Shown here: positions 28,422 through 47,457 of the stretch, piece after piece
How positions within the stretch are numbered: position 1 is the first letter of the stretch
Layout: each line of letters starts with the position of its first letter
DNA from: Byssochlamys sp. IMV 00236
Lineage: Eukaryota; Ascomycota; Eurotiomycetes; Eurotiales; Thermoascaceae
Direction of reading: 5' to 3'
DNA length: 64,000 nt
Assembly (NCBI GenBank): GCA_001931875.2
Contig: MSJH02000808.1
Coordinates: forward strand, 370,773 to 434,772
Notes under the pieces: model-generated
Seen by the model: the letters and a program-made list of their open reading frames with translations, nothing else
What the model was told of the DNA's origin: nothing
Databases searched by the model: none
Made by a program: the position numbers and the translations under genes

Positions 28422-31400
28422 ATGGAGCGAAATATCGATACCTATGCCAGCAAGCTGGCAGACGAGAAGATCGGTATGGTTCCCATAAATTTTGCTGCAC
28501 ATGCCTGGAAGAACTGCGGGGATTTTGGCGAACTGCAAATGGACGTTATTTGCTGACTCCTTGAGTAGATACCAGAGTGAGAACAAATGTCGCGGTCGAG
28601 TTACGGGATAATATCGAGCCGCTATGCTCAGGTTCCAATTACCCCATCTTCCTGGCGAAGCTGTGGCCGATATTCAAGAACATATTGAAGGGGGATCCTG
28701 TGTTTACGAATATGTCATACGAGCAGGTGAGTCAAGGGATTTGTCGCAAAGAGACGTGAAGATGTTATGAAGGCACTAACACCAGTGGACGTCTTCAGAA
28801 AATGAGGAACTGTATTCTCGAGACGCTACACCGGTTACCGATGGCCTCCCCGGATGTCGAACCCTACGCTGCTGAGATGGTAGATGTTCTGATGGGACTG
28901 GTGCGTGTTGAAAACGAAGAAAATGCTGTCCTCTGCATGAAGACGATAATGGACCTGGAGCGGAACCAGGCCAAGGCCACAGCGTCAAAAGTCCAGCCTT
29001 TTCTTGAGCTCATCCAGGAGATGTTCCAGAGCATGGAACAGGTTGTCCGTGATACGTTTGACACGCCGGCCCAAGGCACAACGCCGGGAATGCCATCGAC
29101 GCCTAGTACAACTTCGCAGAATTTCCAGTCGCCGCGGCCCTCTTCACCAGCAACATCGGTGGCAGACTTGGGGCCCGATCAGCAGGCTAATCACCACCTG
29201 TTGAAAGGCATGCAGTCATTCAAGGTTCTGGCCGAATGCCCCATTATCGTGGTCTCCATTTTTCAGGCCCACCGCAGCTCTGTTAACCCAAATGTGAAGC
29301 TCTTTGTTCCTCTAATCAAGAGCATTCTTCTTTTACAAGCAAAACCGCAGGAAAGAGCGCACACAGATGCCGCCGCCCAAGGAAAGATCTTCACAGGTGT
29401 CTGCAAGGAGATAAAGAACCGGGCTGCCTTTGGGGAATTCATTACCGCTCAAGTGAAGACCATGAGCTTCTTGGCGTATCTGTTGCGAATGTACGCACAC
29501 CAATTACAAGATTTCCTTCCGACCTTGCCTTCAGTCGTCGTCCGTCTACTTCAAGATTGTCCCCGAGAGAAGTCAAGCGCTAGGAAAGAGCTTTTGGTTG
29601 CGATTCGTCATATAATTAACTTCAATTACCGCAAGATATTCCTCGAAAAGATTGACGAGCTCTTAGACGAACGGACCTTGATCGGTGATGGACTCACAGT
29701 TTACGAAACTATGCGACCTCTTGCTTATAGCATGCTTGCGGACCTGATCCATCATGTGAGGGATCATCTGAATCGCGATCAAATCCGGAGGACTGTAGAA
29801 GTGTACACGAAGAATCTCCACGATGACTTCCCTGGTACAAGTTTCCAGACTATGAGCGCCAAGCTGCTGTTGAACATGGCCGAGAAGATATCCAAGCTAG
29901 AAGATAAGCAGGATGCGCGGTATTTTTTGATCATGATCCTCGATGCTATCGGTGATAAGTTCGCTGCGATGAATCATCAATACGACAACGCCGTCAAGGT
30001 GTCCAGAGCGAATAAGAAAGGCACCGAAACGCCTTCGGAGAGCTTCCTTGCGAACAAGGACTCCCCTCCAGACTGGGACGAAATCGACATTTTCTCGGCC
30101 GCACCCATCAAGATTTCGAACCCTCGTGACCGCGGTGCTGATCCCGTCTCAGACAATCTATTCCTCTTCAAGAACCTCATCAACGGCCTGAAGAACATCT
30201 TCCATCAGTTGAAGAACTGCAACCCGGAGCATATCCAGATTGACCCCAACAGTGTCCCCATCAATTGGTCTGAAGTATCCTATGGCTACAATGCGGAAGA
30301 GGTCAAGGTGATCAAGAAGCTCTTCCATGAAGGTGCTCGTGTGTTCCGTTACTATGGTGTGGATCAAACTCAGCCAGAGGTTCAATACTCTTCGCCCTTC
30401 GAATTCCTTGCTAGTCAATACACCGCTCCGATGACTCGAGAAGAGAAGGAACTTCTGGAGAGTTTTGGCACAGTGTTCCACTGTATTGACACCGCCACCT
30501 TCCACGAAGTCTTCCACAGCGAGATTCCTTATCTCCATGAGCTCATGTTCGAACATGGTGCTTTACTTCATTTGCCTCAGTTCTTCCTAGCCAGCGAAGC
30601 CACCTCTCCTGCGTTTTCCGGAATGGTGCTGCAATACCTGATGGAACGTATCCATGAAGTCGGAACCTCCGATATGACCAAGGCTAAAATCCTGCTAAGG
30701 ATGTTCAAGCTCTCGTTCATGGCTGTGACTCTCTTTTCTGTACAGAATGAGCAGGTTCTACACCCTCACGTCACCAAGATAGTGACGAAATGTATCGAAC
30801 TCTCGGTGACCGCAGAAGAGCCTATGAACTATTTCCTGCTCCTGCGGTCTCTTTTCCGTAGCATCGGCGGTGGACGATTCGAGTTGCTGTACAAGGAGAT
30901 CCTTCCACTCCTTGAAATGTTGCTGGAGACGTTCAACAACCTGCTAATGGGAGCCCGCAAGCCCCAGGAACGCGATCTTTACGTCGAACTGACTCTCACT
31001 GTCCCGGCACGACTGAGCCATCTCCTGCCCCATCTAAGCCATCTGATGCGGCCGATCGTGGTGGCCCTCCGTGCTGATTCAGACCTTGTCGGACAGGGTC
31101 TCAGAACACTGGAACTTTGCGTGGACAACCTTACCGCTGACTACCTCGACCCGATCATGGCGCCCATCATGGATGAGTTGATGACAGCGCTTTGGGACCA
31201 CCTACGGCCGAACCCTTATAGTCACTTCCATGCGCACACCACAATGAGGATCCTCGGGAAGTTGGGCGGCCGAAACAGGAAGTTCTTGAACCACCCACCA
31301 GAGCTATCTTTCCAGCAATTCGCCGATGACCTGCCGAGCTTCGATATTAAACTCATTGGCCCCAGCGAGAAGCGTCCCTTCCCGGCTGAAATCGGAGTTG

Positions 31401-34400
31401 ATCTAGCCATCGGAAAGCTGTTGGAGGTTCCTAAATCACCAGCAGCGAAAGCATCAGATGGCTACTATAAACAACAAGCCTATCGTATGCTAAGCTCCCA
31501 GCTGAAGCTCTTCATCGGGTTCGAGCATCTTCCTGAAGATCTCGGTTCTCTTCTTCGACTACAGGCCAACGATCTGTTTGAGGGTAAAGCTGGCGGTGTT
31601 CCTGACATTTTCGAGAAGTCTGAACGGTCTAGTTCGATTCCAAAGAAAGTCTCTCAAGAGGAGACGCTGAAGAAGCTGTTGAAGGCTTGCCTTCTTGCCA
31701 CTACTATCCCCGATCTTGAGCAAACAGCTTCTGCCTTCGTAGCAGACGTCTGTAAACACTTTGTTGTTATCGAGGTCGGTCGCTCCCTTGCGCAAGCTCG
31801 GCATAGTCGCAAGCCCTTCGATGTTGCAAGTGGCGAAGGCCCTGTGTATCTGGACTCCAGGCTGCTTGCCGAAGTTGTGGTCGACTGTTTCTCTTCGGAC
31901 AATCCTCTCGTCCGCGACTCAGCCAAGACTGCGCTGAAAGTCATCAAGGACGCAGCTGCTGTCATTTTCGGGTCCCCCGAAAGAGTTCCAAAACTACCTT
32001 TCTGGCAACATTTGTCTCGCACATTCGGCCATAGCTGTTATAGCGAGGAATGGTTTACAAAGGCCGGAGGCAGTCTTGGTATCCATATTCTCGCCACGGA
32101 GCTCGACTTGGGCGATGCATGGCTATACGACAAGCAGGCAGAGTTCGTCCGAGCTCTGATGTATGTCATCAAAGACACGCCGTCAGACTTTCCGGCCAGT
32201 ACGCGTGTTCGGGCACAGGAGACTCTAGATCTTATTCTCAAGCGCTGCAGCAAGAACTTCTCTAAGGACGATTTAAAGAATGAGAAGAGCAGACTCTACC
32301 TGTTGTGCGGCTTCTTCATTTATGAACTTGCACATATGAACAAATATGTGCGCGAGTCGTCTCAGCGTAGCTTCTCTACCATCGCTGGAGTGATCGGTTG
32401 TGAAATCCACGAGCTCATGTTCCCAGTCAAGGAGCGTCTGTTGCAGTCCATCTTCAATAAACCTCTGCGTGCACTGCCGTTCCCCACTCAGATAGGTTTT
32501 ATCGAAGCTATAACTTTCTGCCTGGGTCTGCATAACAATATCGTTACGTTCAATGATCCATTGAATCGGCTAATGCTAGAGTCTCTGGCTCTGGCGGACG
32601 CGGACGATGAGTCTCTTGCCTCGAAGCCCAATGAATTCAAAAACGCAGAAATGATTGTCAACTTGCGCGTGGCCTGCCTCCGTCTCCTATCTATGGCTAT
32701 GAGTTTCCCCGAGTTTGCAAATACACCTCAGAATACCAGCCGCGCGCGTATCATTTCGGTGTTTTTCAAGTCACTTTATTCTCGGTCTCTAGAGGTAATT
32801 GATGCAGCCAATGCTGGGTTGAGGGACGTCCTCACACAGACCAACAAACTCCCGAAAGATCTTCTCCAGAATGGTCTCCGTCCTATCCTAATGAACCTGC
32901 AGGACCCCAAGCGCCTGAGTGTCGCGGGTCTAGATGGATTAGCGAGACTCTTGACGCTGTTAACGAATTACTTCAAGGTGGAGATCGGTGCCCGACTTCT
33001 TGATCATATGAAGATGATTGCGGATGATGCGACGTTGCAGAGAGTTTCCTTCAGTCTGGTTGAACAAAGTGCCCCCATGAAGATAGTTGCAGCGATATTC
33101 AACATATTCCACCTTCTCCCACCGGCCGCGACCTCTTTTATGGAACATCTCGTGAACAAGGTCTTGGACCTCGAAGGAAAGCTTCGGCGCACTTCGAACA
33201 GTCCGTTCAGGAAGCCGCTTGTCAAGTATTTGAATCGCTATCCGAAGGAAAGTTGGACCTTCTTTCAAGCCCGATTCCATGAGGAGCGATATGGTCGTTT
33301 CTTCGGGCAGGTTTTAGCGGACCCTGAAAGCGAGGCACTGCGATCAGCGTTGGTTGCAGACACAGAAGGTTTCATAGCGGCAGGTTTTGGACAGGAGGCG
33401 ACTGACGGCAAGAATACGGCAGCGATCAATGCTATCTATGCTGTGCATTCGATATGCTCATATCCGTCTACTAAAAAGTGGCTTGTGTCGCAGCCAGATC
33501 TAAGGTCTCGTGTGCTAAGCGCAGGAAAAGACCTTGAAATCAAGCTTCGGGGCGATAAATTACCTGCTAATGAGAGACTGAGGGTTGAACAGGCTGAGGA
33601 CCAGTTGATGCAGGTCTTCACGATCTACCTCTCGGAGTCCCTGCAGGACCTTGACTTCCTTTTCGAGATAATTGATGCCCTATCTGCAGATGCATTGAAG
33701 CGCACATTGGCGTTCCCGAAGTTCATTTACAAGCATATTATCACGAATGAGTCGATCGACTACAGACGGTCGGTTATTATGCGGTGCTTGGATCTCTATG
33801 GTCAGCGCAACTCTTCACAGAGGACGAAAACCTACGCGTTCCACAACTTGGTCAATCCCATTTTCGCCATGGATGTCAAGACTACGTGGAACAGTCCGCC
33901 TAACAGCCCGAAACTCATGGACAAGAGCATGACCGAGTCAATCCAGAGTCGCCTCTGGAGACCTCAGTTGGGAGATATCAGCGAAGAATCGAACCAACCT
34001 GGCGTTGATCATTCTAGAATGGAGCTTCTACAACTGTCCGCCCTTCTCATAAAGTACCACCACCAGACCGTACAGGATTCTCGAAAGGATATCATCAAGT
34101 TCGCGTGGAACTACATCCGCCTGGAAGATATCATCAACAAATACGGTGCCTATGTTCTTATCAGCTACTTCATAGCGCATTACGAGACCCCATCCAAGAT
34201 CGTGGTCCAGGTATATGTCGCCCTGTTGAGGGCCCATCAGAACGAAGGCAAAGCTCTTGTCACCCAAGCTCTGGACGTTTTGGCCCCCGTTTTGCCGAAG
34301 AGAATCCTATCCACTAGCAACAACCAAGCTGCAGACCTTCGGTATCCGTTGTGGGCGAAGTGGCCTCGTCGCATTCTCGCAGAAGAGACTGCGAATCTGC

Positions 34401-37400
34401 AGCAGGTTATGAGTATCTTCCACTTCCTAGTGCGACAACCGGATCTGTTTTACGAGTCCAGAGAACACTTTGTGCCTCTCATTGTACCGTCTCTAATCAA
34501 GATTGCGGCACCACCTAACCCTTCTAACGAGAGCAAAAAGCTCGCTCTTAATCTAATTGGCCTTATCTGGCACTGGGAGCAGAAGAGAGTGAAGGGCTAT
34601 ACGGCGACATCGAATAGCGTTACGGAATCACCGGGTGGAAGAAAGCGCAAGTTCGAGGACACGCAAACAGCTTCCGCTTCTCCTTCGGCTGCACTCGCGC
34701 CACCAAATATGCGCGAACGCTCAGAGTATCTGGCTCCTCATGACCTCCGGGCCGCCATGGTCAAATATCTGATAACATTTATTACAACGATACCGGAACG
34801 GTTCCCTGTACCTGCGTTCAAGCTTCGGGACCTTCCTTCTTCCAAGCCTCAACCCCCAGTTTTGAGCGGAGAAATGATCAAAAAAGCCGTCCAGCTCCTG
34901 CGGGATCTAATGTCACCTGAGTACTGGAGCGACCTTGACATCGACCTCTATCAAAAGGTCACGGAGCCTATACTCGCTGGTGAAAAGGCCGACAAGCCGG
35001 ACGAAAAGCACACAACAAGCATCATCAACGCCCTGCAAGTTGTGCGGATTATGCTTGCCTCGAAGCCAGACGATTGGATTATGGCCCGTTTGCCACTGAT
35101 TCAAAAGCTTCTAGAGAAACCTCTACGGTCAGATAATCCTGAAATCCAAGAGTCACTTCACGGGTTGGAAGATGAAATGGATATTTCCCCGAAGCTCCCG
35201 CCCCCAGTCAAACGTGTGCTTGATGCTTTGCCAGACGATCAGCCCGAGGAAGAAGACGGAATGGATGTTGACGACTCATCTTCCGAGTTCGTCACTTATT
35301 TGTCGGCCATTGCAACCGAGGGTCTCTCAGCCAACAATTACATCTCTAGCCTGAACACTCTGTGGACTCTCTCCAAGAACAAGCCTTCCGAGATGGATGC
35401 CCATATCCCCCAAGTTATGAAGGCCTTCTCCCAGAAGCTTGCCAAGGAACATGTCGCAGCGTACACCAACAACCAGGTTCCTGGCCAGTATCCTCCGGGT
35501 AACAAACTTGCAGAGGGTGTTCCGGACCAGCAGGAATTTGAAATCGGCGTCGATCTGATCTTCAAGACAATCGAATTAATCTCCGTAAGGATGTCCCATC
35601 TTGGAGAACAGAGACGTCCGTTCTTGAGTGTTCTGGCCCAGTTGGTCGAACGCTCGCAGAATATCAAGCTGTGCAGCAAGGTTCTTGGAATGGTCGAGAC
35701 TTGGATCTTCCACTCTACTGAATCCTGGCCCACGCTGAAGGAGAAAACAGCGGTGTTGCACAAGATGCTTCTCTTCGAGTCTAGACCAGACCAAACAATG
35801 CTAAAGAAATTCTTGGATCTGGTCATAAGGATCTACGAAGACTCGAAGATCACCCGGACAGAGCTGACTGTTAGACTGGAGCATGCTTTCTTGATCGGCA
35901 CCAGGGCACAAGACGTCGAAATGCGCAACCGCTTTATGACGATCTTCGATCGGTCTCTAACTCGCATGGCCAGTTCTCGGCTGAGCTACGTTCTCACCTC
36001 CCAGAACTGGGATACCCTTGCCGACTCTTTCTGGCTTTCTCAAGCATCACATCTAGTGATAGGCTGCATCGATATGGCAAGCCCAGCAAGGCTGCACCCT
36101 GATGACTTCACGGTCTATCCAGTTTCGTTCCTCTTCAGTGTCGCAGATAAAGATAAAGAAAATGTCATTGTTGATAATCAACTGGAAGCCTTTGTTGCGG
36201 ACCGCAGACGGTTCATGGCGGAATTGGGCGATGTTCGTGTCCGCGATTTAATGGAGCCGCTTTGCCAGCTTCAGCATACGGATTCCAATGTGGCTTACAG
36301 GCTGTGGACTACGTTGTTCACTATTTTCTGGTCAACATTATCCAGGGAGGAACGCATCGATCTGGAGAAAGGCATGGTGACTCTGGTGACCCGCGAGTAT
36401 CATCAGAGGCAGCTCGACAAGCGTCCCAACGTTGTGCAGGCTCTACTTGAGGGTGCAGTAAGAGCTAAGCCAAGATTCAAGGTGCCCCCTCACGTCATGA
36501 AATACCTCAGCCGCACCTATGACGCTTGGTACACTGCAGCCGTCTACCTCGAAGAGTCTGCAATAAGCCCTATTATTGATACACCGGCTGTTCGTGAAAG
36601 TAATCTGGATGCTCTCGTTGAACTCTATGCCGGATTACAAGAAGAAGACTTCTTCTACGGGACGTGGCGACGACGCTGTAAGTTCGTGGAAACAAATGCC
36701 GCACTGTCCTATGAGCAGCAGGGCATGTGGGACAAGGCTCAGCAGCTGTATGAAAATGCCCAGATCAAAGCTCGCTCAGGAGCTATGCCGTTCTCACAAG
36801 GTGAATACTACTTGTGGGAGGATCACTGGTTGATCTGCGCGCAGAAGTTGCAGCAGTGGGAGATCCTCAGTGACTTCGCCAAGCACGAAAATATGAACGA
36901 TCTTCTTCTCGAAGCCGCTTGGAGGAACATTGAAAATTGGCAGAGCGAAGCAAACCGTGAACAGCTTGAGTCATTGATCAAGTCCGTGTCAGATGCACCG
37001 ACCCCGAGGCGCACGTTTTTCCAGGCTTTCATGGCCCTCTTGAACTTCCACTTCAAGAAGGAGAATATTCAGGATTTCAACGGAATATGTGATGAGTCTA
37101 TTCAACTCTCTATCCGCAAATGGCACCAACTACCAAAGAGGATCACAAATGCCCATATTCCGATACTCCAGCACTTCCAGCAGCTTGTCGAGCTACATGA
37201 CGCAAGTGTCATTTGCGCTAGCCTGGCGCAAACGAACGAAAGAAACCTAGATACCAAGTCTGCTGAGCTGAAGCTCTTGCTGGGAACCTGGCGTGACCGT
37301 TTGCCTAACGTCTGGGACGATATCAATGCTTGGCAGGACCTTGTTACATGGCGTCAACACATCTTCCAACTCATCAACGCCACTTACCTTAGCCTTTTGC

Positions 37401-40093
37401 CGCCCCAGACGAATAATGTGGCCAGCAATTCTTATGCCTACCGTGGATACCACGAAACCGCATGGATTATCAACCGTTTCGCCCATGTCGCCCGGAAACA
37501 TCAGATGCCTGAAGTCTGTATCAACCAACTTAGCCGGATCTACACGCTCCCGAACATCGAGATCCAGGAAGCCTTCTTAAAGCTAAGAGAGCAAGCCAAG
37601 TGCCACTATCAGAATCCTAAGGAGCTTAATAGCGGTCTGGATGTGATAAACAACACCAATCTCAACTACTTCGGCGCCCAGCAGAAGGCAGAATTTTACA
37701 CACTCAAGGGCATGTTCCTAGCTAAGCTCAACCACGTCAACGAAGCGAACGAAGCCTTTGGTGTTGCTCTCTATTATGATCTTAGACTTGCGAAGGCATG
37801 GGCTGAGTGGGGTCAATACAGTGACCAACGTTTCAAGTCTGATCCCACGGATTACGAGTTGGCTAGTAACGCCGTGAGCTGCTATCTCGAAGCAGCAGGT
37901 CTTTACAAGAATTCGAAGTCTAGGAAGCTTCTCAGCCGCATTCTCTGGCTTCTTAGCCTTGACAATGAGGAAGGCCGTATTTCGAGTGCCTTCGAGAACT
38001 TCAAGGGCGATACCCCAGTCTGGTATTGGATCACCTTTATCCCGCAGCTGCTCACAAGCCTGTCCCACCGCGAAGCACGTCTCTGCAAGGCTGTTCTTGT
38101 GAAGATTGCCAAGCTCTATCCACAGGCGTTGTTTTTCCTTCTACGAACGAACAGAGAGGACATGCTGAGCATCAAGAAACAGCACGAGCAGAAACAAGAG
38201 AAGCTTAACCGCGCAAGACAGCAGGCTCAGGCTCAGGCTGGCGTGAAGGTGGATGGAAACGGGCCCAAGCCTGCAACAGCAAATGGAGAAACATCCACGC
38301 AAAACGCCCAGGGTGCTGCCAACAACGACGGTGCCGCTGCTCCTCAGAATACCAATGGGCAGTCCAATGGGCAGCCGCAAGCGCAAAATGCAGGACAACA
38401 ACAGGGGCAAACTCCGGGTCAGCCTCTGGCTCAGAATCAAGGCCAGGGCCAAAACGGGAATCAGCCTGCGGGCGAGCAAGAACAGCCACAGAAAGAGCCT
38501 CTCAAGAAGCCATGGGAGTACTCAGATGAAATCATGTCTGGTCTCAAGACAGCTTTCCCGCTGCTTGCGCTGTCAATGGAAACGATGGTCGACCAGATCC
38601 ACAAGAACTTCAAGTGTCCTCCAGACGAGGACGCGTATCGACTTATTGTTGCATTGCTTAATGATGGTCTTGCCTATGTGGGTCGCATGCCAGGCTCCTA
38701 TGCGCAGGACTTCAAGCTGCCTCCTGCCACTGAAGCGAACATCACTCGCTTTGCGGAGACCATTCTTCCTGCCCATATCCGCAAGTCTTTCGAGGCCGAT
38801 TTCGTGGTGAAGAAGCCGACAATGTACGAATATATCCAGAAACTGCGTCGCTGGCGTGACAAGTTTGAGGAGAAGCTCGATCGACGGCCGCAGTCTCAGT
38901 TCCTGGAGTCGTACTCCCCACATCTTAGTGAGTTCCGTTTCCTCAAGTTCGACGAGGTTGAGGTTCCTGGGCAATATCTGCTGCACAAGGATAAGAATCA
39001 AGACTTTGTTCGCATCGATCGCTTCCTTCCTGATGTGGATTTGGTGAGGGGCATCGGCGTCTGTCACCGTCGCCTGAGAATCCGTGGCCATGATGGTAGC
39101 GTCCATCCTTTCGCTGTGCAACATCCTGCAGCCCGTCATTGCAGGCGTGAGGAGAGGATCCTTCAACTATTCCGTATCTTCAATGGTCTCTTAGCGAAGC
39201 GCAAGGAAAGCAGACGACGCAATCTGTACTTCCACCTTCCGCTCATGGTGCCCCTGGCACCTCATATCCGTCTTGTTCGCGACGATCCTTCGTACATCTC
39301 CATACAGGGTATATACGAGGATTATTGCAGGCGTGTCGGAATGAATAAAGACGAGCCGGTGCTCTTCACTATGGAAAAGATGAGAGCTCTGGCGGAAACG
39401 AAGCAGAACCGTACCTCTGACCAGCAGCAGGTCCTTCGTACTGAGATTCTTGTTGCTATTCAAGAGAAGTGGGTCCCGAGCACAATAGTGCTGGATTACT
39501 TCCAGAAGATCTACCCCAACTATGCGGACTTCTGGCTCTTCCGTCGTCAATTCTCCCACCAATATGCTGCGATCGCATTTATGACCTACGTGATGCACAT
39601 GGGCAACCGGTATCCGAACAAGATTTCGATTTCATGTGCTACCGGTGACATTTGGGGCTCGGAGCTCATTCCGACCATCAACCCTGCCAAGGCTTTCTTT
39701 TACAACCCGGAGCAAATTCCCTTCCGTCTCACTCCTAATATCCAGACTCTCATGGGACCTATTGCTACCGAAGGTGTGTTTGCTTGCGCATTGATGGCCG
39801 TAGCTCGCTGCCTCACTGAGCCTAAGCATGAGCTCGAACAACAGCTGAGCATCTTTGTCCGCGACGAAATGATGTTCTGGGCCACAGCACAGCACCGCGG
39901 TGCCTTGCCAACACAGCAGCTGAGGGACCTGGTCTATAACAATAGCGATATCATTGTCAACAGAGCAGTGAGCCTTGCCAGCCCTCCTGAGGGTAACCTT
40001 CCGGCGAACCAGACGACAGTCGATCTGATCTCCAAGGCGGTGAACCCACAGCATCTGGCATCTTGTGACGCCCTGTGGATGCCATATCTCTAA
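28422..40093 (+). CDS. tra1: Tra1, SAGA/NuA4 scaffold pseudokinase
   Basis: Largest subunit of the SAGA and NuA4 histone acetyltransferase complexes; it binds activators and recruits the complexes to promoters. Exons are 28422-28473, 28569-28726 and 28799-40093, giving 3834 residues. Introns of 95 and 72 nt lie within the first 70 codons, then one 11.3-kb open exon. The N-terminal two thirds are HEAT-like helical repeats, followed by the FAT (TPR-like) region. A Gln/Asn/Gly-rich low-complexity insert lies at about residues 3211-3305. The PI3K-like domain spans about 3485-3800. Its catalytic loop reads HMGNRYPNK (about 3670) where active kinases have a GDRHxxN-type loop, and no DFG follows. 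This is the expected Tra1/TRRAP pseudokinase state. The FATC end is CDALWMPYL. Length matches fungal Tra1. Confidence 0.97.
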
Positions 40094-40530
40094 ATGCATC
40101 CAAGCATTCTGCAGTCGATTGGTAAAGTGGCTTATTTATCATTCTTATTTCCTTTTCATGTCTCAGTTTTGCTTTTGAAGGATTCCTGTATGAGTTTGCG
40201 CTTTATGGAAACGGCGTCTTCTTTGACCGAGCATGATCGGTTTACAAAAAAGAGCGTACGGGTCTGGCAAGCTGGATGAGCTGTTTTTGCTTACTAGCGC
40301 GGCGCATCGGAAGGGGGGCATCTTTATGGTGGACATGATGGGTTTTGATTCTTAATCATGTATTTTGCTTTTTTTCTGTATAATGTTCGAATTCTCTACT
40401 GTGTTATCGGTTTCAAAGACCAGTTATGTTCGATTAAGCTTTAGTTCCGGAAGTAATTATTAGATCTTTCGGCTCTGAGCATCTATCTTCACCGAGGTAA
40501 TTATTAGTTGATCACTGCCCGGTTAATCAG
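40094..40530. other. tra1 3' flank, no gene seen
   Basis: A+T-rich sequence between the tra1 stop and the first yju2-tail repeat copy. A GTAATTATTAG motif occurs twice near 40453 and 40497. Probable tra1 terminator region. Confidence 0.5.
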
Positions 40531-40745
40531 GTAATATGAGTACTCTTAATTTTGTTGTTTCCCCTAGGTGTTGGGAACGCCGTGTCTTGAGCAAGCGAGA
40601 ACAAACGGGCCCATATATTTAGTGAAACAAATCCTCTATAATAAAACATAGTGTAGATGTATACAGAAAAGCCTAAATACTTAAACCTTCTGAAGTGATA
40701 AATCACAATCAACTTTCCGAAAAAGTTCATACAAGAGACGGCTTA
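40531..40745 (-). repeat. Proximal copy of yju2 3'-end direct repeat
   Basis: About 215 bp that aligns along its whole length, with small gaps, to 46204-46428, the authentic 3' end and downstream flank of yju2. By eye identity is roughly 70-75%. Landmarks shared in order are TACTCTTAAT, GTCTT.AGCAAGC, AAATCCTC.ATAATAAAAC, TAGTGTA.AT and GAGACGGCTT. On the minus strand the last codons read KPSLV-stop, as in yju2, with a synonymous change. It starts 88 bp beyond the NLR stop codon, in the orientation that could supply that gene's 3' end. Confidence 0.85.
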
Positions 40746-40832
40746 ACCCCATCTGTTTCCACTAGCCTGTTAGCATACAGATATACCTGACTATGTATTG
40801 CAATGCCGTAAAATATATACCCGTGACTACAA

Positions 40833-43800
40833 TCAACTGCTTCTATTGTTAGTTCTCTTTGCGAACAAGTCCCGGTCTCCAGCGCCCAATATCGCTTGTT
40901 GGTTCGTGGCGGTATAAGTGGGAATGCTCTCCCGGGAACGCTCAAGCATAACCGGGAGCAGCATACCTGATCTCCCAGCTATATCGTTGAGTGAATACCG
41001 GTCCTGAACCGCCTTGTTCAGCAGGATCCGGACATATTCCGACTGCTCGCTTCCTGGCGAGTTTAAGAGGGTGGGCAGACTAATTGAGCGCAGTTCATTA
41101 GGTAGACGAGTAAGCGTCTGAGACTGCAGTCGGCCATCGGTTCCCAAGGTCTCCAGAACAACTGCTCCCTCGTGCTCGAGATTGGAGAGTTGTGATATGT
41201 ACCCAACTCCATCACCGCTGTGAGTCAAAGCCAGTGACCCGACTTGTATCGGGGACTCTCGGCTTACTTCACGGTTGGATAGGTATTGGAGGAGGTTTTC
41301 AGTGGTCTTCTGTTGGGTCTGTATCTGCAAATCTGTTTGTGTGCCAGTGGTATCGGTATCTGGGCCTTGTATGGGACCAGAACCGTACCCTTGTCGCTGT
41401 TTTTGATCGTGAAAGTTGATACTCCCTGGAACGGCGCAGTCTCCCACCTTGACGATGACAGGGCGGCCTGTGTGGAAGTCTTTGCCGCATACATAATCTG
41501 CATCTGGGGTGAAAGTCATCAGGTCGAGAGTCCCCTCATAAACTATGCGGAGTCCGACTACGGGTGGACACGCGAGGAAGCCTCTGTCGTTATAGTTGCT
41601 GAAATCCCAAACGTACGTTTGGGGTTTCCGGGGCAGATGTTGTCCCAAGGGGCCAAAAGCGCAGAAGGCAATTAGCGGACTTGTCGGGTGAAACACCACT
41701 GCTTTATCTAGAAAATGCATGGAGCAGGCGGAAGGAATGTAAAGCTTCCACGACGCAAAGCATGCGTATCCCTGGTGGGAGCTTCCATGCGTTCTTCCGC
41801 GATAGAACTGAATGAGTCCCTCATGAGCGAGATCACCGAGTCAGAGGGGAAGATCCCAGATGCTCGACGAAAAACCACCACTACGGGTTCCTGGTCCCAT
41901 GTCTTCAACTGAACAGAATCATCAAGGATAGTCCGTCTGTATGGCGGGGTTCGGTTAAATATGTCTAACGTTTCACATTGGATCCTGGGTCGATCAAAGT
42001 TCGGTCCGCTCTGTTCAGAGATTTCATCAATATCGATTATCAAGTTGAGAGCAGCAACTCGCCGGAGGTTATTCGAGATCGAAATAGGAAACCTAAATCT
42101 GGTCGATTGTGAGATTACTGGTTGTTTGTTGGCGGCCCCCTTGAAGAGTATGTCTAGTGCTGCCGGGTCAACTTCCCACACCAACGAGCACAAGCGTTTC
42201 TCGCCGTCAACAGTCCATAAATCATAACGCATTTGCCAATCGACGATATCCTGTGGACCCCCTCTCTGACGAGGACCTTTCAGCAGGGAACTAGTGAAAA
42301 GAGCGTTTTTAGTCTCCGTTTCCATATTGCATACTTTCTTAACCGCGGTATACACTCACTCTGGGGGTATCAATCGAACTGTCGCGATCCGCATAGAGTC
42401 TCCCGAAACTTGGGTTTGGAGCAAAATGCTCCTAGCGTCTGTGTCCTCTGGATGAGCAACAAAGACGACTCGACTATCTGCTGTCTGCAAGTATTTTGAT
42501 TCGCTGAATGCTCGAATACTATCTCCCCAAACTTCGTTCGGTTCCTTTTCCAGGATATAGGACCATGAGCTGTTCAATATTTTGACATCCTCGGAGAAGC
42601 GGGACGTTTCCTTGATGACTTCAGAAAGCCGAGAATCGTAATTACCAGTTGCATTAAACGTGTTGTCTGGAAGCGGGCAGACTACTGGTGGGTTTCGGAA
42701 TAACCAAGAAGCCTCCAACCACATTGTGACTCTTGGCTTACTGTAAACGAATTCAAGGAGGAGGCGAATTAGGTGATCATGGCCGTCACGGTAGATATCT
42801 AATGCCCGGGTACATTGCGTTATGGCCTCGACGATATGCTGAGACCAATATTGAGCAACATACGGTAGAAGAGGAAACTTCACTCGGGTCAAAGAGGCGT
42901 CAGGAATCACGTTACGGTCACCGCTAAGAGGTTCAGCGGGAACCGTATGGACGAGATATGCGAGAGCAGTGAGTCCAATGGTCATATGGATTTCCACTTT
43001 GTCGGACTGAAATTTTGTTACTGGCTGGTTAGACATACCAGCTCGCTCTGTTGGGGCGAAAAACTCATAGGCCGACATGTGGATAAATTGAACCATTTTT
43101 GTGGTTGTGAGCTCGAGAAGGCCTCCGAAAATTGAGCCAAATGATTTTTCAAAATCAGGTATTATATCACCGATGGTTCGTGGTCTATCGAACGGAACTA
43201 TGATCGCCTCGAGCAGCTCCTCCACATGTATAGGTCTGCGGGCACCGAGGATCCACCGGAAGCCTTTGATGATATTAATATCCCACTCTGTTGCTGCACC
43301 ATCACTCAGATTACGCGATATTTCTGCGTATATAGCGTCAAGACCCTCCAACCGGTTCAGATTTTCGATAGCGTCGAGTCTTTGGTTCACGGTAAGCCTC
43401 CTCAGCTGAAGGAATTTGATGAGCAGTTTCACCCAGAGGAACATCCCATTGGCTCGAGGAACAATTTTCTCAACATAGACGTCTGAACACGCTGTTGGTA
43501 AAAGCGTTTTCGCCATAAGTTCTTCCACTTTGCATTTCACGAAAAGCGTCAAATCGCCTGCGTTGTGTTCTCCGCGGAGGTTCAAGATATCAAACTTCCC
43601 CTCCCACGATTCCGGAATCTCGATAGTTGGCCGCGAAAATATAACGAACGATGTGCTTTCAAATCCATGTGTCAAGTCGCAAATCCTATTCAAGAAGTTA
43701 TTTGGATCGCTACATTCATCAACAGCGTCGATCACAATACTGGAAGGGAAGCGTTTGAAAAGAAGGCAAAGGACGGCAACCACTTCATTGTCCGTAGCCC

Positions 43801-45362
43801 GTCGCTGGCCAATTACTTTCCGGTCACAGAGAGTAGATGCTATGTCCACTGCTATGGTCTCGTGGCGAAGGCTCTGTAGCAGCTGTACCAGAATAGAGCG
43901 AAATGCTAGGCCTGCGGTGTCTTGACCAATCGGCCTGTTGAAAAAGTAGTATGCAACCACGTTGTGTGGCAGTGGTTGTGACGACGCCTGCTGTTTTACA
44001 AGATTGTCAATTACAACTGGGCAGATAGTTGTCTTTCCAAATCCCGGTTTTCCTACACCAGTGGAATCAGCTTAAACCAAGAGATATTTCGGCGCTAGCA
44101 AAAGTAGATATCACCCTTACCCTGAATACTGAGAATAGGCTTTTCGCTGTGTTTATGGAGCCTCCAATTTTTGTAAAGGGGATCTTCCAATATCCAGTCA
44201 CATGTACCGGGTTCCCGAAACATAGAAGCCTCTTCATAGAGGTCTTTCCACAGCGGCGCATCGATCCATTGGCCGAGCTCTTGGACACGGGTATCTATGA
44301 CCAGAGTTAGCCAAATCCCTATATCGTATATGGTAAGGTTTCCCTTTGGGTCACAGTACCTAGCTGTTCAATCTCTTTTTTCTTGTCTTTAAGGGCCTCT
44401 TCAGGATCCGCCTTTTGTCTTTCTAGCTTCTCCATCCAGTCATCATATTCCTTGATAAACCGCAGTGCCACTTCCTGCGTTGACCTTGTTGCCTCATACT
44501 CAAAAAGTGTCTTGCTTTGCTCAAGACGCTGCTTGAGTCCTTCGAAGTCCAAGTCAAATGGCCTCCACATCAGTCGCCCAATGAAACTTCTCCTGAACCG
44601 TAGTCTAGCTATAAAGTCTCAGTTAGAAGTCTTGCTCTCGCATAAATACAGGATTATCCAACGGGTTCGGAACACATTACCATGTTTCTTCGAGGTAAAA
44701 AGGCGAATGGCTCGATAACACAACTGAATTATGTCGACGTATATATTTGCCAGAGCCTTCCGAAGGCGAATGGTGACAGTCTTGTCCGGGTCCTTCACGT
44801 TCTCCCGGAAAATTTTGTAGTGCTCTTCGTACACCTCCAGCATTATACACATACTCTGAAACATCGAACTGAGCTTCTCCAGATACTCAATGTAGTTCGA
44901 ACTGATCTAGGCAGGGGTTAACTGATTATTTTAATCCAGTAGGTAACTAAAAAGACAGAACAACAAACCTGAAAAAGTAGCCTCAATGCACCCCATACTA
45001 ATCCTGCATACTGGGGGTTTGTTTGGACAAAGATGTCAACAACTGCAAAGTATGGTTTCAAATTTTGTCCAAATTCACGAATAGCCTCCATGCATTTCCC
45101 CAGTTTGCGCTTTCGATAATGGTTGGACTCCTCATTGACTTGGTTTTTGATTGCAATCGTCATTGCCTCTGCAGATTGGTAAATCTGCAAATCTTTCCAT
45201 TCGTCATCTGAAAGAGAGCCAACAAACAAAGAAAAGGCGTCCTGGAAGATCTCCAGCATGTGTTTATCTCTGTTTGAATTAGAGAAACATCTCACGAAAG
45301 AGCAACGGAACTGTCTTTACATACGGTGGTCTTTTAGTATCGGTATCAGTATCAGTATCCAT
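40833..45362 (-). CDS. NLR-like STAND protein: DUF7708-NACHT
   Basis: Signal-transducing ATPase of the fungal NLR class, a group used in non-self recognition and programmed cell death; this gene's role is not known. Eight-exon model: 45362-45325, 45269-44969, 44906-44681, 44608-44360, 44294-44121, 44052-42360, 42290-41885 and 41807-40833, giving 1353 residues. Introns are 55-77 nt. Residues about 30-180 match DUF7708 (FVQTNPQYAGLVWGALRLLF). Walker A GKPGFGKTT is at 330-338, Walker B IVIDAVDE at about 435-442, FVIFSRPT at about 465, and the winged-helix region contains MFLWVKLLIKF. The C-terminal part has no clear repeat array; only AVVFHP...YVWDF looks like a WD-type blade. The last intron (41808-41884) has a weak GTAGTG donor; without it the frame stops at 41708, so a one-base frameshift is the alternative. 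Confidence 0.78.
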
Positions 45363-46203
45363 AGCGGGGTATATGTCCATCCCAAGATCTTTCCCTGCCC
45401 TTTTATGGTGGTCACTCCAATCTGTTATCCTGTGAGTTTGACTAGTCACGGCTTGTTTTCAAATATCCAGATACAATTGCAATCCCGTCATACCTGGATA
45501 TCAGTTGCTCAAAGACAAGAAATTCAAAGATGTCTTCTGCGTGAAGTTATGCGCTCTGACCTTTGGCCACCAAGTAGCCGCCCCAAGTCGGACAAGGCTG
45601 AGTCTTCGTTTCAGCCTGCTTCGTTAGTCCCCCTAACACAGCCTCATACAGCATCACACAGCCTTACACAGCCTCATAGTGCTTGATAAAGTCCATACCA
45701 AGCAAATTGCAGGGCCGGTAGATAGTGCAGGGCAGCTGGACTCCCGAGAGGCCAAGATAGCTTTGCTCCCCAAAGCCATCCCATGTTAGACCTACAAGAA
45801 CAGATGGTCATGAATTGGGCTACAGCAAGGCAAGAGTTGCTAGAATTTGCATTAGTGCACCAATAAGGAACATGATCAAGAAACATGGAGCGAACTCACA
45901 TATCCTGGCCCTAGATCAGGGGCTCCATGGATAACTCTTGATCTGGCACGTCCTTATGCTGAGTGATGACACGGATGGCTGCATTTATCCCTTGGCCTTG
46001 CTGAGTACATACATTGTTGATTTCCATCCGGAATTTCTGCTGCCCGTCAAATGTATTTAGATCCTCATATATTGAGCAAGGTGAGTTAAAGTAGACCACA
46101 AGAGCTACTTATGACCCACCCAAAACCATGATGGTCGCACTTGCTTATTTAACCACTCTAACTGCCGCAATTTCCCCGCTAGAAAATATTGGTCCTAGTA
46201 TTA
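45363..46203. other. NLR promoter side, no gene seen
   Basis: Upstream flank of the NLR gene up to the distal repeat copy. A CACAGCCT-type repeat lies at 45636-45680. Two short minus frames (45674-45886 and 45911-46099) have no recognisable content, though they could be decayed remnants. Confidence 0.45.
45636..45680. repeat. Degenerate CACAGCCTCATA tandem repeat
   Basis: About four imperfect units of ACACAGCCTCAT/ACAGCATC in 45 bp upstream of the NLR gene. Confidence 0.7.
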
Positions 46204-46428
46204 TGGCGATATGAATACTCTTAATTTAATTCTATTCCCCCTTGAATATTAAGAATGTCTTAAGCAAGCAAGTCCGAACAACTTCATATCTTTGGTGCTA
46301 GAGTGAAAAGTAAATCCTCCATAATAAAACCTAGTGTACATACATATGTATAGGAAAGCCCAAACGCCTGAATCTCATGGAATGATAGATCATAATGAAC
46401 ATTAAAAAGCTCATACGAGAGACGGCTT
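46204..46428 (-). repeat. Distal (authentic) copy of yju2 3'-end direct repeat
   Basis: Contains the final codons, stop (46411-46413) and downstream flank of yju2. It is the counterpart of 40531-40745, and similarity ends abruptly just inside the coding region at GGCTT. Confidence 0.85.
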
Positions 46429-47457
46429 CTTCTTGATACCAAGACCGGCCGAGAATGGCTGTTTCTTCGGCTTTTTAACGCGCGCAAAGGACGGTGCGGG
46501 CATTTCTTTCTTTTCCTCCGTCGCAGGAGTGGTGTCCACCTCATCCTCGACTATCCTCTTCACTTTCTCCCCACTAGCAGTCATGAATGCTCTTCGTGCT
46601 GCCTCTTCAATTTCCTGCTCCTCCTTCAACTTTGCCTCGTTGACCTCGTCTCTCACATGCGCCAGCGCAACATCCGAACCTAGCGCCTCTCCGCGCTCAA
46701 TACGCGCATTCCTCGTGCGGATCTCGTCCAGCGCATCCGCAACAGCCATCTCGCGCTTCGAATCAAGCATCTTCTCCTCCAGCTCCGCCATCTTATCGCG
46801 CTCCAGGCGCTCTTGCTCCTCATTCTCCTCCCTCTCTAATCGAGCTAGCGTCTCCTCTTCGGTCTCGTTGTAGTTCTCCGCCTTGGAATCTCGCCAGGGT
46901 TCAAAGTTCCGCTTCGCGCCCTTTTCGCATTGGTAGTCCATATTCTTCGGATCTGTCTTGAAAGTGATCTCGCCGCTGCATCGCGTACAGCGGATGTAGA
47001 AGCGGTAGATGGGGATAGTGAGATATTTCTCCTCGGTGGTTTCTTTCCGGGCGTTGAATTTGCGGCCTTTGTAGATGTATTCTCCACACTGGTGAGGTAG
47101 ACAAAGTCAGTTTGTGCTCGAGTAAGAACCTCTTTTCTTGGAGGGAAGAAAGGGATGAAGGAAGCGGAAAAACTCACATGCATGCATTTCATACTGAATG
47201 GCGCCATCAATCGTACGGTCATAAGCTATCGCGACAGTCAGTCAGTCTCTGCCTGTTATTCGCATCATGTAAGATTATCGATCGTTTCTTACCTTCGGTC
47301 CTGTTCCTCTTAGATGACGCGGCGTGCGCGTAATCGCCGACGGATCGAAGTCCGGGGGATAGTATTTCGTCTGGGAAACGAGATGTTAGCTAGCTGTTTC
47401 TCTAGCGATTATGATCAGGTACGGAGCAGTACTTACCAAGACCTTGCGCTCAGACAT
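46411..47457 (-). CDS. Yju2/Cwc16 splicing factor
   Basis: Spliceosome component of the CWC16/Yju2 family, acting at the first catalytic step (branching) of pre-mRNA splicing. Four exons: 47457-47437, 47370-47293, 47225-47178 and 47088-46411, giving 274 residues. All introns (66, 67, 89 nt) are phase 0. The N-terminus MSERKVLTKYYPPDFDP and the block LMTVRLMAPFSMKC, followed by GEYIYKGRKFNARKE, are diagnostic. Four zinc ligands form two CxxC pairs at C47/C50 and C83/C86. A long charged helical region (Glu/Arg-rich) follows and the tail is basic, ending IKKKPSLV. Length is typical. Divergent from cut9/APC6. Its 3' end is duplicated beyond the NLR gene. Confidence 0.93.

What the first reader, a model, noticed from the sequence alone, without database searches (positions are those of the whole stretch)
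40531..46428. NLR gene island bracketed by diverged copies of the yju2 3' end
The sequence shows a ~215-225 bp direct repeat, one copy just past the NLR stop (40531-40745), the other at the true yju2 3' end (46204-46428), about 5.67 kb apart. The 5.5 kb between holds only the NLR gene and its flanks. The simplest reading is that an NLR cassette entered the tra1-yju2 interval and the target end was duplicated, or that the cassette arrived by recombination carrying a related yju2 tail from another strain or species. The copies differ by roughly a quarter of positions by eye, too much for a recent duplication. NLR genes are known to be polymorphic and mobile between fungal isolates.
Basis: partly seen in the sequence, partly recalled or inferred. 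Interest (0 to 1): 0.75.

Follow-up and report, generated by a model that had tools for sequence, protein, structure and literature searches.

The report
Polymorphic fungal NLR between yju2 tails
In a Paecilomyces mould, a highly variable immune-type receptor gene sits between two old, diverged copies of the tail end of a neighbouring splicing gene, most likely a scar left when the receptor gene was copied in from a different version of the same chromosome region.

Summary
The repeat is real: 40534-40744 and 46209-46428 align over 228 columns (69% identity, 78% without gap columns, E 1.5e-17; score 173 against a best of 47 in 500 shuffles). It holds the last 18 nt of yju2 (KPSLV-stop) plus about 200 nt of 3' flank, with sharp ends. 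The window is Paecilomyces cf. variotii. Between the copies lies a DUF7708-NACHT NLR with no close paralogue in its genome. The database holds three diverged clusters of it whose representatives are named P. variotii (15, 1 and 6 member sequences), whereas yju2's best match is 99% identical. The window's allele is a mosaic: 99.5% identical to one representative over 1039 residues, then 88.5% over 331, with a frame change near 41.84 kb. None of 11 other NLR loci examined, of 28 found, shows such a bracket. I read it as a het-like allorecognition locus whose NLR came in with a donor yju2 tail, perhaps by one-sided break repair, the distal tail being the recipient's remnant. Donor, direction and mechanism are inferred; no relative's DNA could be reached.

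The parts
40534..40744 (-). T1: distal, truncated copy of the yju2 3' end (KPSLV-stop plus 3' flank)
   Evidence: 69.3% to T2 over 228 columns, E 1.5e-17; score 173 vs shuffle maximum 47 of 500
46209..46428 (-). T2: proximal copy, continuous with the intact yju2 gene
46411..47457 (-). yju2 (Saf4/Yju2 splicing factor); start and introns by eye
   Evidence: Pfam Saf4_Yju2 E 4.9e-15 on the last-exon ORF; last exon 99% to P. variotii P0041; single match in the genome
40833..45380 (-). NLR gene, hand-made model of 7 exons (45380-45325, 45269-44969, 44906-44681, 44608-44360, 44294-44121, 44052-42360, 42290-41838) and a C-terminal piece 41837-40833 in another frame
   Evidence: DUF7708 E 1.5e-15 and NPHP3_N E 1.4e-26; homologues P0161-P0163; exon model
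41836..41840 (-). place of the frame change relative to the three P. variotii cluster representatives; also about where identity to P0161 drops
45381..46208 (-). intergenic DNA between T2 and the NLR start; carries a short 10-bp-period tandem repeat at 45622-45691
   Evidence: no homology to the T1-tra1 interval; repeat family D1
28802..40093 (+). tra1, convergent with the NLR and yju2
   Evidence: Tra1_ring, Tra1_central, FAT, PI3_PI4_kinase, FATC

Best explanation
The tra1-yju2 interval of this Paecilomyces holds a polymorphic NLR of the allorecognition (het) type. SHOWN: a diverged duplicate of the yju2 3' end brackets it; the NLR exists as diverged alleles under P. variotii names; the window's allele is a mosaic. 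INFERRED: a chromosome with yju2-tail-tra1 and no NLR suffered a break 18 nt before the yju2 stop. The yju2 end was repaired from a diverged haplotype (same species or a close relative) that carried yju2-tail-NLR, copied the donor's yju2 end (T2) and the NLR, and was then joined to the other broken end, which begins exactly at KPSLV-stop and is the recipient's own tail (T1). yju2 stays intact with a donor tail; T1 remains as a truncated remnant that may now end the NLR transcript. The T1/T2 divergence is then haplotype or species divergence, not time since a duplication.
For: T2 runs seamlessly on from yju2 while T1 starts abruptly inside the coding end, as a joined break would. Divergence K80 0.27, in the range of published balanced haplotypes (PMC10890737 passage). 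NLR clusters of 98, 85 and 85% identity with P. variotii names, next hit 43%, against 99% for yju2: excess polymorphism at the NLR. Mosaic allele: 99.5% over 1039 aligned residues then 88.5% over 331 to the same representative (Fisher p about 2e-19), so diverged haplotypes do recombine here, and the foreign part lies on the T1 side. Precedents: coding and null NLR alleles at hetE of A. fumigatus (PMC11138114 passages); a partial het-c copy beside pin-c in Sordaria macrospora (PMC2988816 passages).
Against: No NLR-lacking Paecilomyces chromosome, no donor and no second tail outside this genome was seen; the break-repair steps are inference. Other NLR loci examined lack such a scar (0 of 11). 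The locus of the P0161-P0163 genes in their own genomes is unknown. The window's allele has a frame change, so this copy may not make the full receptor. Allorecognition function is untested. The yju2 C-terminus itself does not look polymorphic.
Confidence: 0.42

Rival explanations
1. Local duplication: the tail was duplicated in place when the NLR entered (staggered break or tandem duplication), and two once identical copies drifted apart.
For: Simplest topology; needs no donor tail. Substitutions run both ways and no block of the tail is conserved beyond chance, as neutral drift would give.
Against: Needs an age of about K80 0.27 while the NLR cluster is 98% identical within the P0161 group; nothing beyond the copies is shared. 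Neither is decisive.
Confidence: 0.28
2. Interspecies transfer: the [yju2 tail + NLR] stretch came by introgression or horizontal transfer from another Paecilomyces or a more distant Eurotialean species and recombined at yju2.
For: The NLR has a patchy list of relatives: after the P. variotii clusters come Aspergillus cavernicola and A. californicus (40-43%) and Geoglossomycetes.
Against: yju2's last exon is 99% P. variotii, and clusters at 85-98% under the P. variotii name suggest long residence. This is a variant of the best explanation with a farther donor.
Confidence: 0.16
3. A site-targeting mobile cassette that lands at the 3' end of a core gene and restores it with a carried tail, as bacterial islands do at tRNA genes.
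For: Geometry: restored target end, displaced target end, cargo between.
Against: No integrase or transposase ORF seen among the ORFs in the interval; no inverted repeats of 30 bp or more; no second near-identical copy; 0 of 11 other NLR loci.
Confidence: 0.07
4. Assembly chimera of two strains or haplotypes.
For: 47.4 Mb in 840 contigs, larger than P. variotii genomes by recall; the frame change lies about where allele identity switches.
Against: yju2 and NLR have no second close match in the assembly, the contig is 556 kb.
Confidence: 0.06

Closest known systems
hetE of Aspergillus fumigatus (NACHT + ankyrin gene; PMC11138114, passages read)
   Same: Eurotialean NLR gene between core genes, two diverged coding alleles plus a null allele.
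   Different: Ankyrin C-terminus there, no Pfam repeat here; trans-species tree and phenotype exist there, not here; the passages read mention no flanking gene-tail duplicate. The authors did not validate hetE itself by expression.
het-c/pin-c of Sordaria macrospora and Neurospora (PMC2988816, passages read)
   Same: A conserved gene linked to an allorecognition gene, with a partial copy of the conserved gene (S. macrospora) and a 177-bp piece of another gene in one haplotype's intergenic region (N. crassa het-c2/pin-c2).
   Different: Different gene families (HET domain there); tandem duplication of whole genes rather than a 3' tail.
sec-9/plp-1 type loci: NLR beside a polymorphic essential partner (recalled; mentioned in PMC11138114 and PMC10890737 passages)
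   Same: NLR next to an essential gene.
   Different: There the partner protein itself is polymorphic; Yju2's end is conserved.
Bacterial genomic islands at tRNA 3' ends (recalled)
   Same: Insert lies between a restored and a displaced copy of the target gene's end.
   Different: No integrase, diverged rather than near-identical repeats, one occurrence.

Membership tests
Fungal NLR (STAND receptor) | NACHT/NB-ARC-type nucleotide-binding domain with N-terminal effector-type domain | tested here: met
   NPHP3_N E 1.4e-26 over its cut-off, DUF7708 N-terminal E 1.5e-15; the narrower NACHT model scores 19.8, under its cut-off 26.7
Fungal NLR (STAND receptor) | C-terminal repeat (sensor) domain | tested here: inconclusive
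   No Pfam match in the C-terminal part of the window's protein, or in P0161 and P0163; no structure predicted
het (allorecognition) locus | Diverged alleles within a species against conserved neighbours | tested here: met
   Protein level, by record names only: clusters at 98, 85 and 85%; yju2 99% to P. variotii. Locus of those genes unseen
het (allorecognition) locus | Trans-species polymorphism / balancing selection | not testable with these tools
   No population or relatives' DNA reachable
het (allorecognition) locus | Incompatibility phenotype between unlike alleles | not testable with these tools
   Needs strains
Mobile element / genomic island | Recombinase or transposase in the insert | tested here: not met
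   Only the NLR is recognised between the copies; short ORFs were not searched one by one
Mobile element / genomic island | Further copies in the genome | tested here: not met
   Cassette DNA finds only itself; this search sees near-identical DNA only, for T1 as query did not even return T2

The most novel reading that the evidence does not exclude
Fungal NLR allorecognition genes travel between haplotypes or species as 'gene plus core-gene tail' units that land at the 3' end of an essential gene and restore it, so that the displaced tail is a readable scar of each acquisition; here such a unit entered a lineage that lacked the NLR.
Probability: 0.13. Interest if true: 0.75.

Novelty: new member of a known kind. 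Interest (0 to 1): 0.42.

Why it matters
How fungal allorecognition genes come to sit beside conserved essential genes, and how coding and null haplotypes interconvert, is mostly inferred from finished loci. A remnant tail with a sharp break point would be a fossil of one such step: comparing it with tails in other P. variotii strains would show which haplotype was donor, which was recipient and where the break fell. It also names a candidate incompatibility receptor in P. variotii, for which the listings I searched showed no described het gene.

Tried and rejected
0 of 11 had one; 4 of 11 had self-matches, all in long open stretches that read as WD40-like or ankyrin-like repeats by eye. The stretches reach only about 4-6 kb to each side of the nucleotide-binding domain, so a wider bracket would be missed. 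In the window, 0 of 6 other tiles (five of 10 kb, one of 4 kb) had a direct repeat.

RIP as the cause of divergence: not supported. Differences run both ways (C in T2/T in T1 7, T/C 12, G/A 7, A/G 5).

Tandem duplication of [tail + NLR] with later loss of one NLR: no remnant, since nothing beyond T1 resembles what lies beyond T2.

Conserved blocks in the tail as a sign of retained function: not supported; runs of identity are as random columns give (p 0.58 and 0.32).

Structured RNA: no Rfam family in 40000-46500. PDB by sequence: nothing for P0161. 5.8S rRNA for species naming: no match in the assembly. Relatives' DNA: yju2 in genome contigs and viral contigs and the NLR in viral contigs gave no confirmed relative. 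The first NLR protein search (one exon as query) returned 40 proteins, at best 45-47% identical, all without organism names; its length limit hid the full-length P. variotii proteins that one search found.

Limits and errors of mine: (T1 as DNA query against the genome) did not return T2, so it says nothing about other diverged tail copies. The hand model carried the first reading frame about 125 nt too far before the X and used one intron that the P. variotii proteins contradict; both were mended, which supersedes the mosaic counts. The motif list printed empty labels and was not used.

Full report
WHAT IS THERE. Self-comparison of the whole window returns 40534-40744 against 46209-46428 at 69.3% over 228 columns, E 1.5e-17, as the only off-diagonal match at E <= 1e-3 apart from a 28-bp palindrome at 41601-41628. 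Without gap columns 158 of 203 positions agree; there are 31 transitions, 14 transversions and several indels; K80 is 0.27. The best of 500 dinucleotide shuffles scores 47 against 173 observed.

Both copies point the same way as yju2 and the NLR, on the minus strand. The proximal copy T2 runs on from the intact yju2 gene (Saf4/Yju2): its first 18 nt are the last five codons and the stop (KPSLV-stop), the rest is 3' flank. T1 keeps the same 18 nt with one synonymous change, but what precedes it is unrelated NLR flank. Beyond either copy there is no similarity above shuffled sequence. The end of Yju2 is conserved: 43 of the 120 listed homologues end in IKKKPSLV (120 listed of 4850 found). On the other side lies convergent tra1.

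THE ORGANISM. The last yju2 exon is 99% identical to a Paecilomyces variotii entry and 96% to P. lecythidis, against 77-80% for the best-listed Aspergillus and Talaromyces entries. The window lies in a 556-kb contig of a 47.4-Mb, 840-contig assembly. Species naming beyond 'P. variotii or very near' was not possible (one search found no 5.8S).

COPY NUMBER. yju2 has one match in the genome. The cassette as DNA finds only itself. The NLR as protein finds itself and two places at 24% and 21%. The tail as DNA finds only itself, but that search did not return T2 either, so other diverged tails are not excluded.

THE NLR. A hand-made exon model gives a protein with DUF7708 (E 1.5e-15), NPHP3_N (E 1.4e-26; the narrower NACHT model stays under its cut-off) and a long C-terminal part without a Pfam match. 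The search with residues 1-1101 listed 18 proteins. Three clusters have representatives named P. variotii: P0161 (15 member sequences, 98%), P0162 (1, 85%), P0163 (6, 85%); next is Aspergillus cavernicola at 43%. The names of the other members are not shown, so whether all are P. variotii is unknown; P. lecythidis is not among the 18, but could hide inside a cluster, so its absence there is not shown. Where in their genomes these genes lie is unknown too.

THE ALLELE IS A MOSAIC. Piece by piece, the window matches P0161 at 99.5% over 1039 aligned residues before the frame change and at 88.5% over 331 after it; there it is as close to P0162 (89.2%) and P0163 (88.9%). That is about 5 and 38 differences (counts taken back from the rounded percentages), Fisher p about 2e-19. 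In the last 55 residues 11 sites match P0163 alone, none P0161 alone, and 2 match P0161 and P0162 against P0163. A faster-evolving C-terminus could lower identity by itself, but not produce the P0163-only sites; P0161 and P0162 are no further apart there than in the N-terminal part (89.8% against 88.4%). So alleles of this gene have recombined, and the foreign part lies on the side of T1. Near 41837 the window's reading frame departs from the three representatives, which are annotated as continuous: the receptor of this strain may be truncated, or the base call may be wrong.

IS THE BRACKET A HABIT OF NLR GENES HERE? Not in what I could see. Of 28 other distinct NLR places counted I examined 11, one 10-kb stretch each, and none is bracketed; 4 show only coding repeats. 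This speaks for a single event and against a general mobile-cassette mechanism.

HOW IT MOST LIKELY AROSE. Three facts need one story: yju2 is seamless into T2; T1 starts abruptly 18 nt before a stop codon; and the copies are as far apart as diverged haplotypes rather than fresh duplicates. One-sided repair of a break in the last codons of yju2 does this: one end copies a diverged donor's yju2 end, tail and NLR, and is then joined to the waiting other end, which begins with the recipient's KPSLV-stop. The far end of the repeat is then simply where NLR-bearing and NLR-lacking chromosomes part company. Precedents for the ingredients: het-B haplotypes of Podospora with 70-80% nucleotide identity (PMC10890737, passages); hetE of A. 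fumigatus with two coding NLR alleles and a null allele, the coding sequence found in 36 of 46 genomes (PMC11138114, passages); [quoted passage not shown] The repair steps are inference, the direction (which tail is native) is not established, and old duplication in place is the main rival.

A rough yardstick, inference only and on assumed constraint: 4% amino-acid difference in Yju2 between the window and P. lecythidis would go with silent divergence of the order of 0.2-0.4, which is where T1/T2 lie. The copies would then be about as old as that species split, or as different as two species' tails.

NOVELTY. A polymorphic NLR among core genes is a known kind of thing in fungi. The paired yju2 tail is an unusual scar that I did not see described in the library searches made (listings and starts of abstracts only, empty; passages read from four papers, PMC11138114, PMC12258605, PMC2988816, PMC10890737). 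Most subscription papers are not in that library. The sec-9/plp-1 work is known to me by recall and through those passages; the paper itself is not held.

Noticed in passing
41836-41840 (minus strand): Frame change in the window's NLR relative to the three P. variotii cluster representatives, about where identity to P0161 drops; either a truncated allele or a sequence error.
   Followed up: partly
45622-45691: Short imperfect tandem repeat with a 10-bp period in the NLR upstream region.
   Followed up: no
41601-41628: 28-bp self-complementary stretch inside the NLR's C-terminal coding region.
   Followed up: no
L029 (G000:C573:14255-14527) and L030 (G000:C763:5928-6200): Two contigs give NLR-domain matches of the same score and coordinates in the profile: a recent duplicate or redundant contigs in the 47.4-Mb assembly.
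   Followed up: no
Protein clusters P0161-P0163: The N- and C-terminal parts of the representatives differ in relative similarity (P0161-P0163 86.0% then 82.5%, P0161-P0162 88.4% then 89.8%), hinting that parts are exchanged between alleles in other strains too.
   Followed up: partly
L055, L056, L057, L060: Other NLRs of this genome carry long internally repetitive WD40-like or ankyrin-like coding stretches (read by eye), unlike the NLR of the finding.
   Followed up: no
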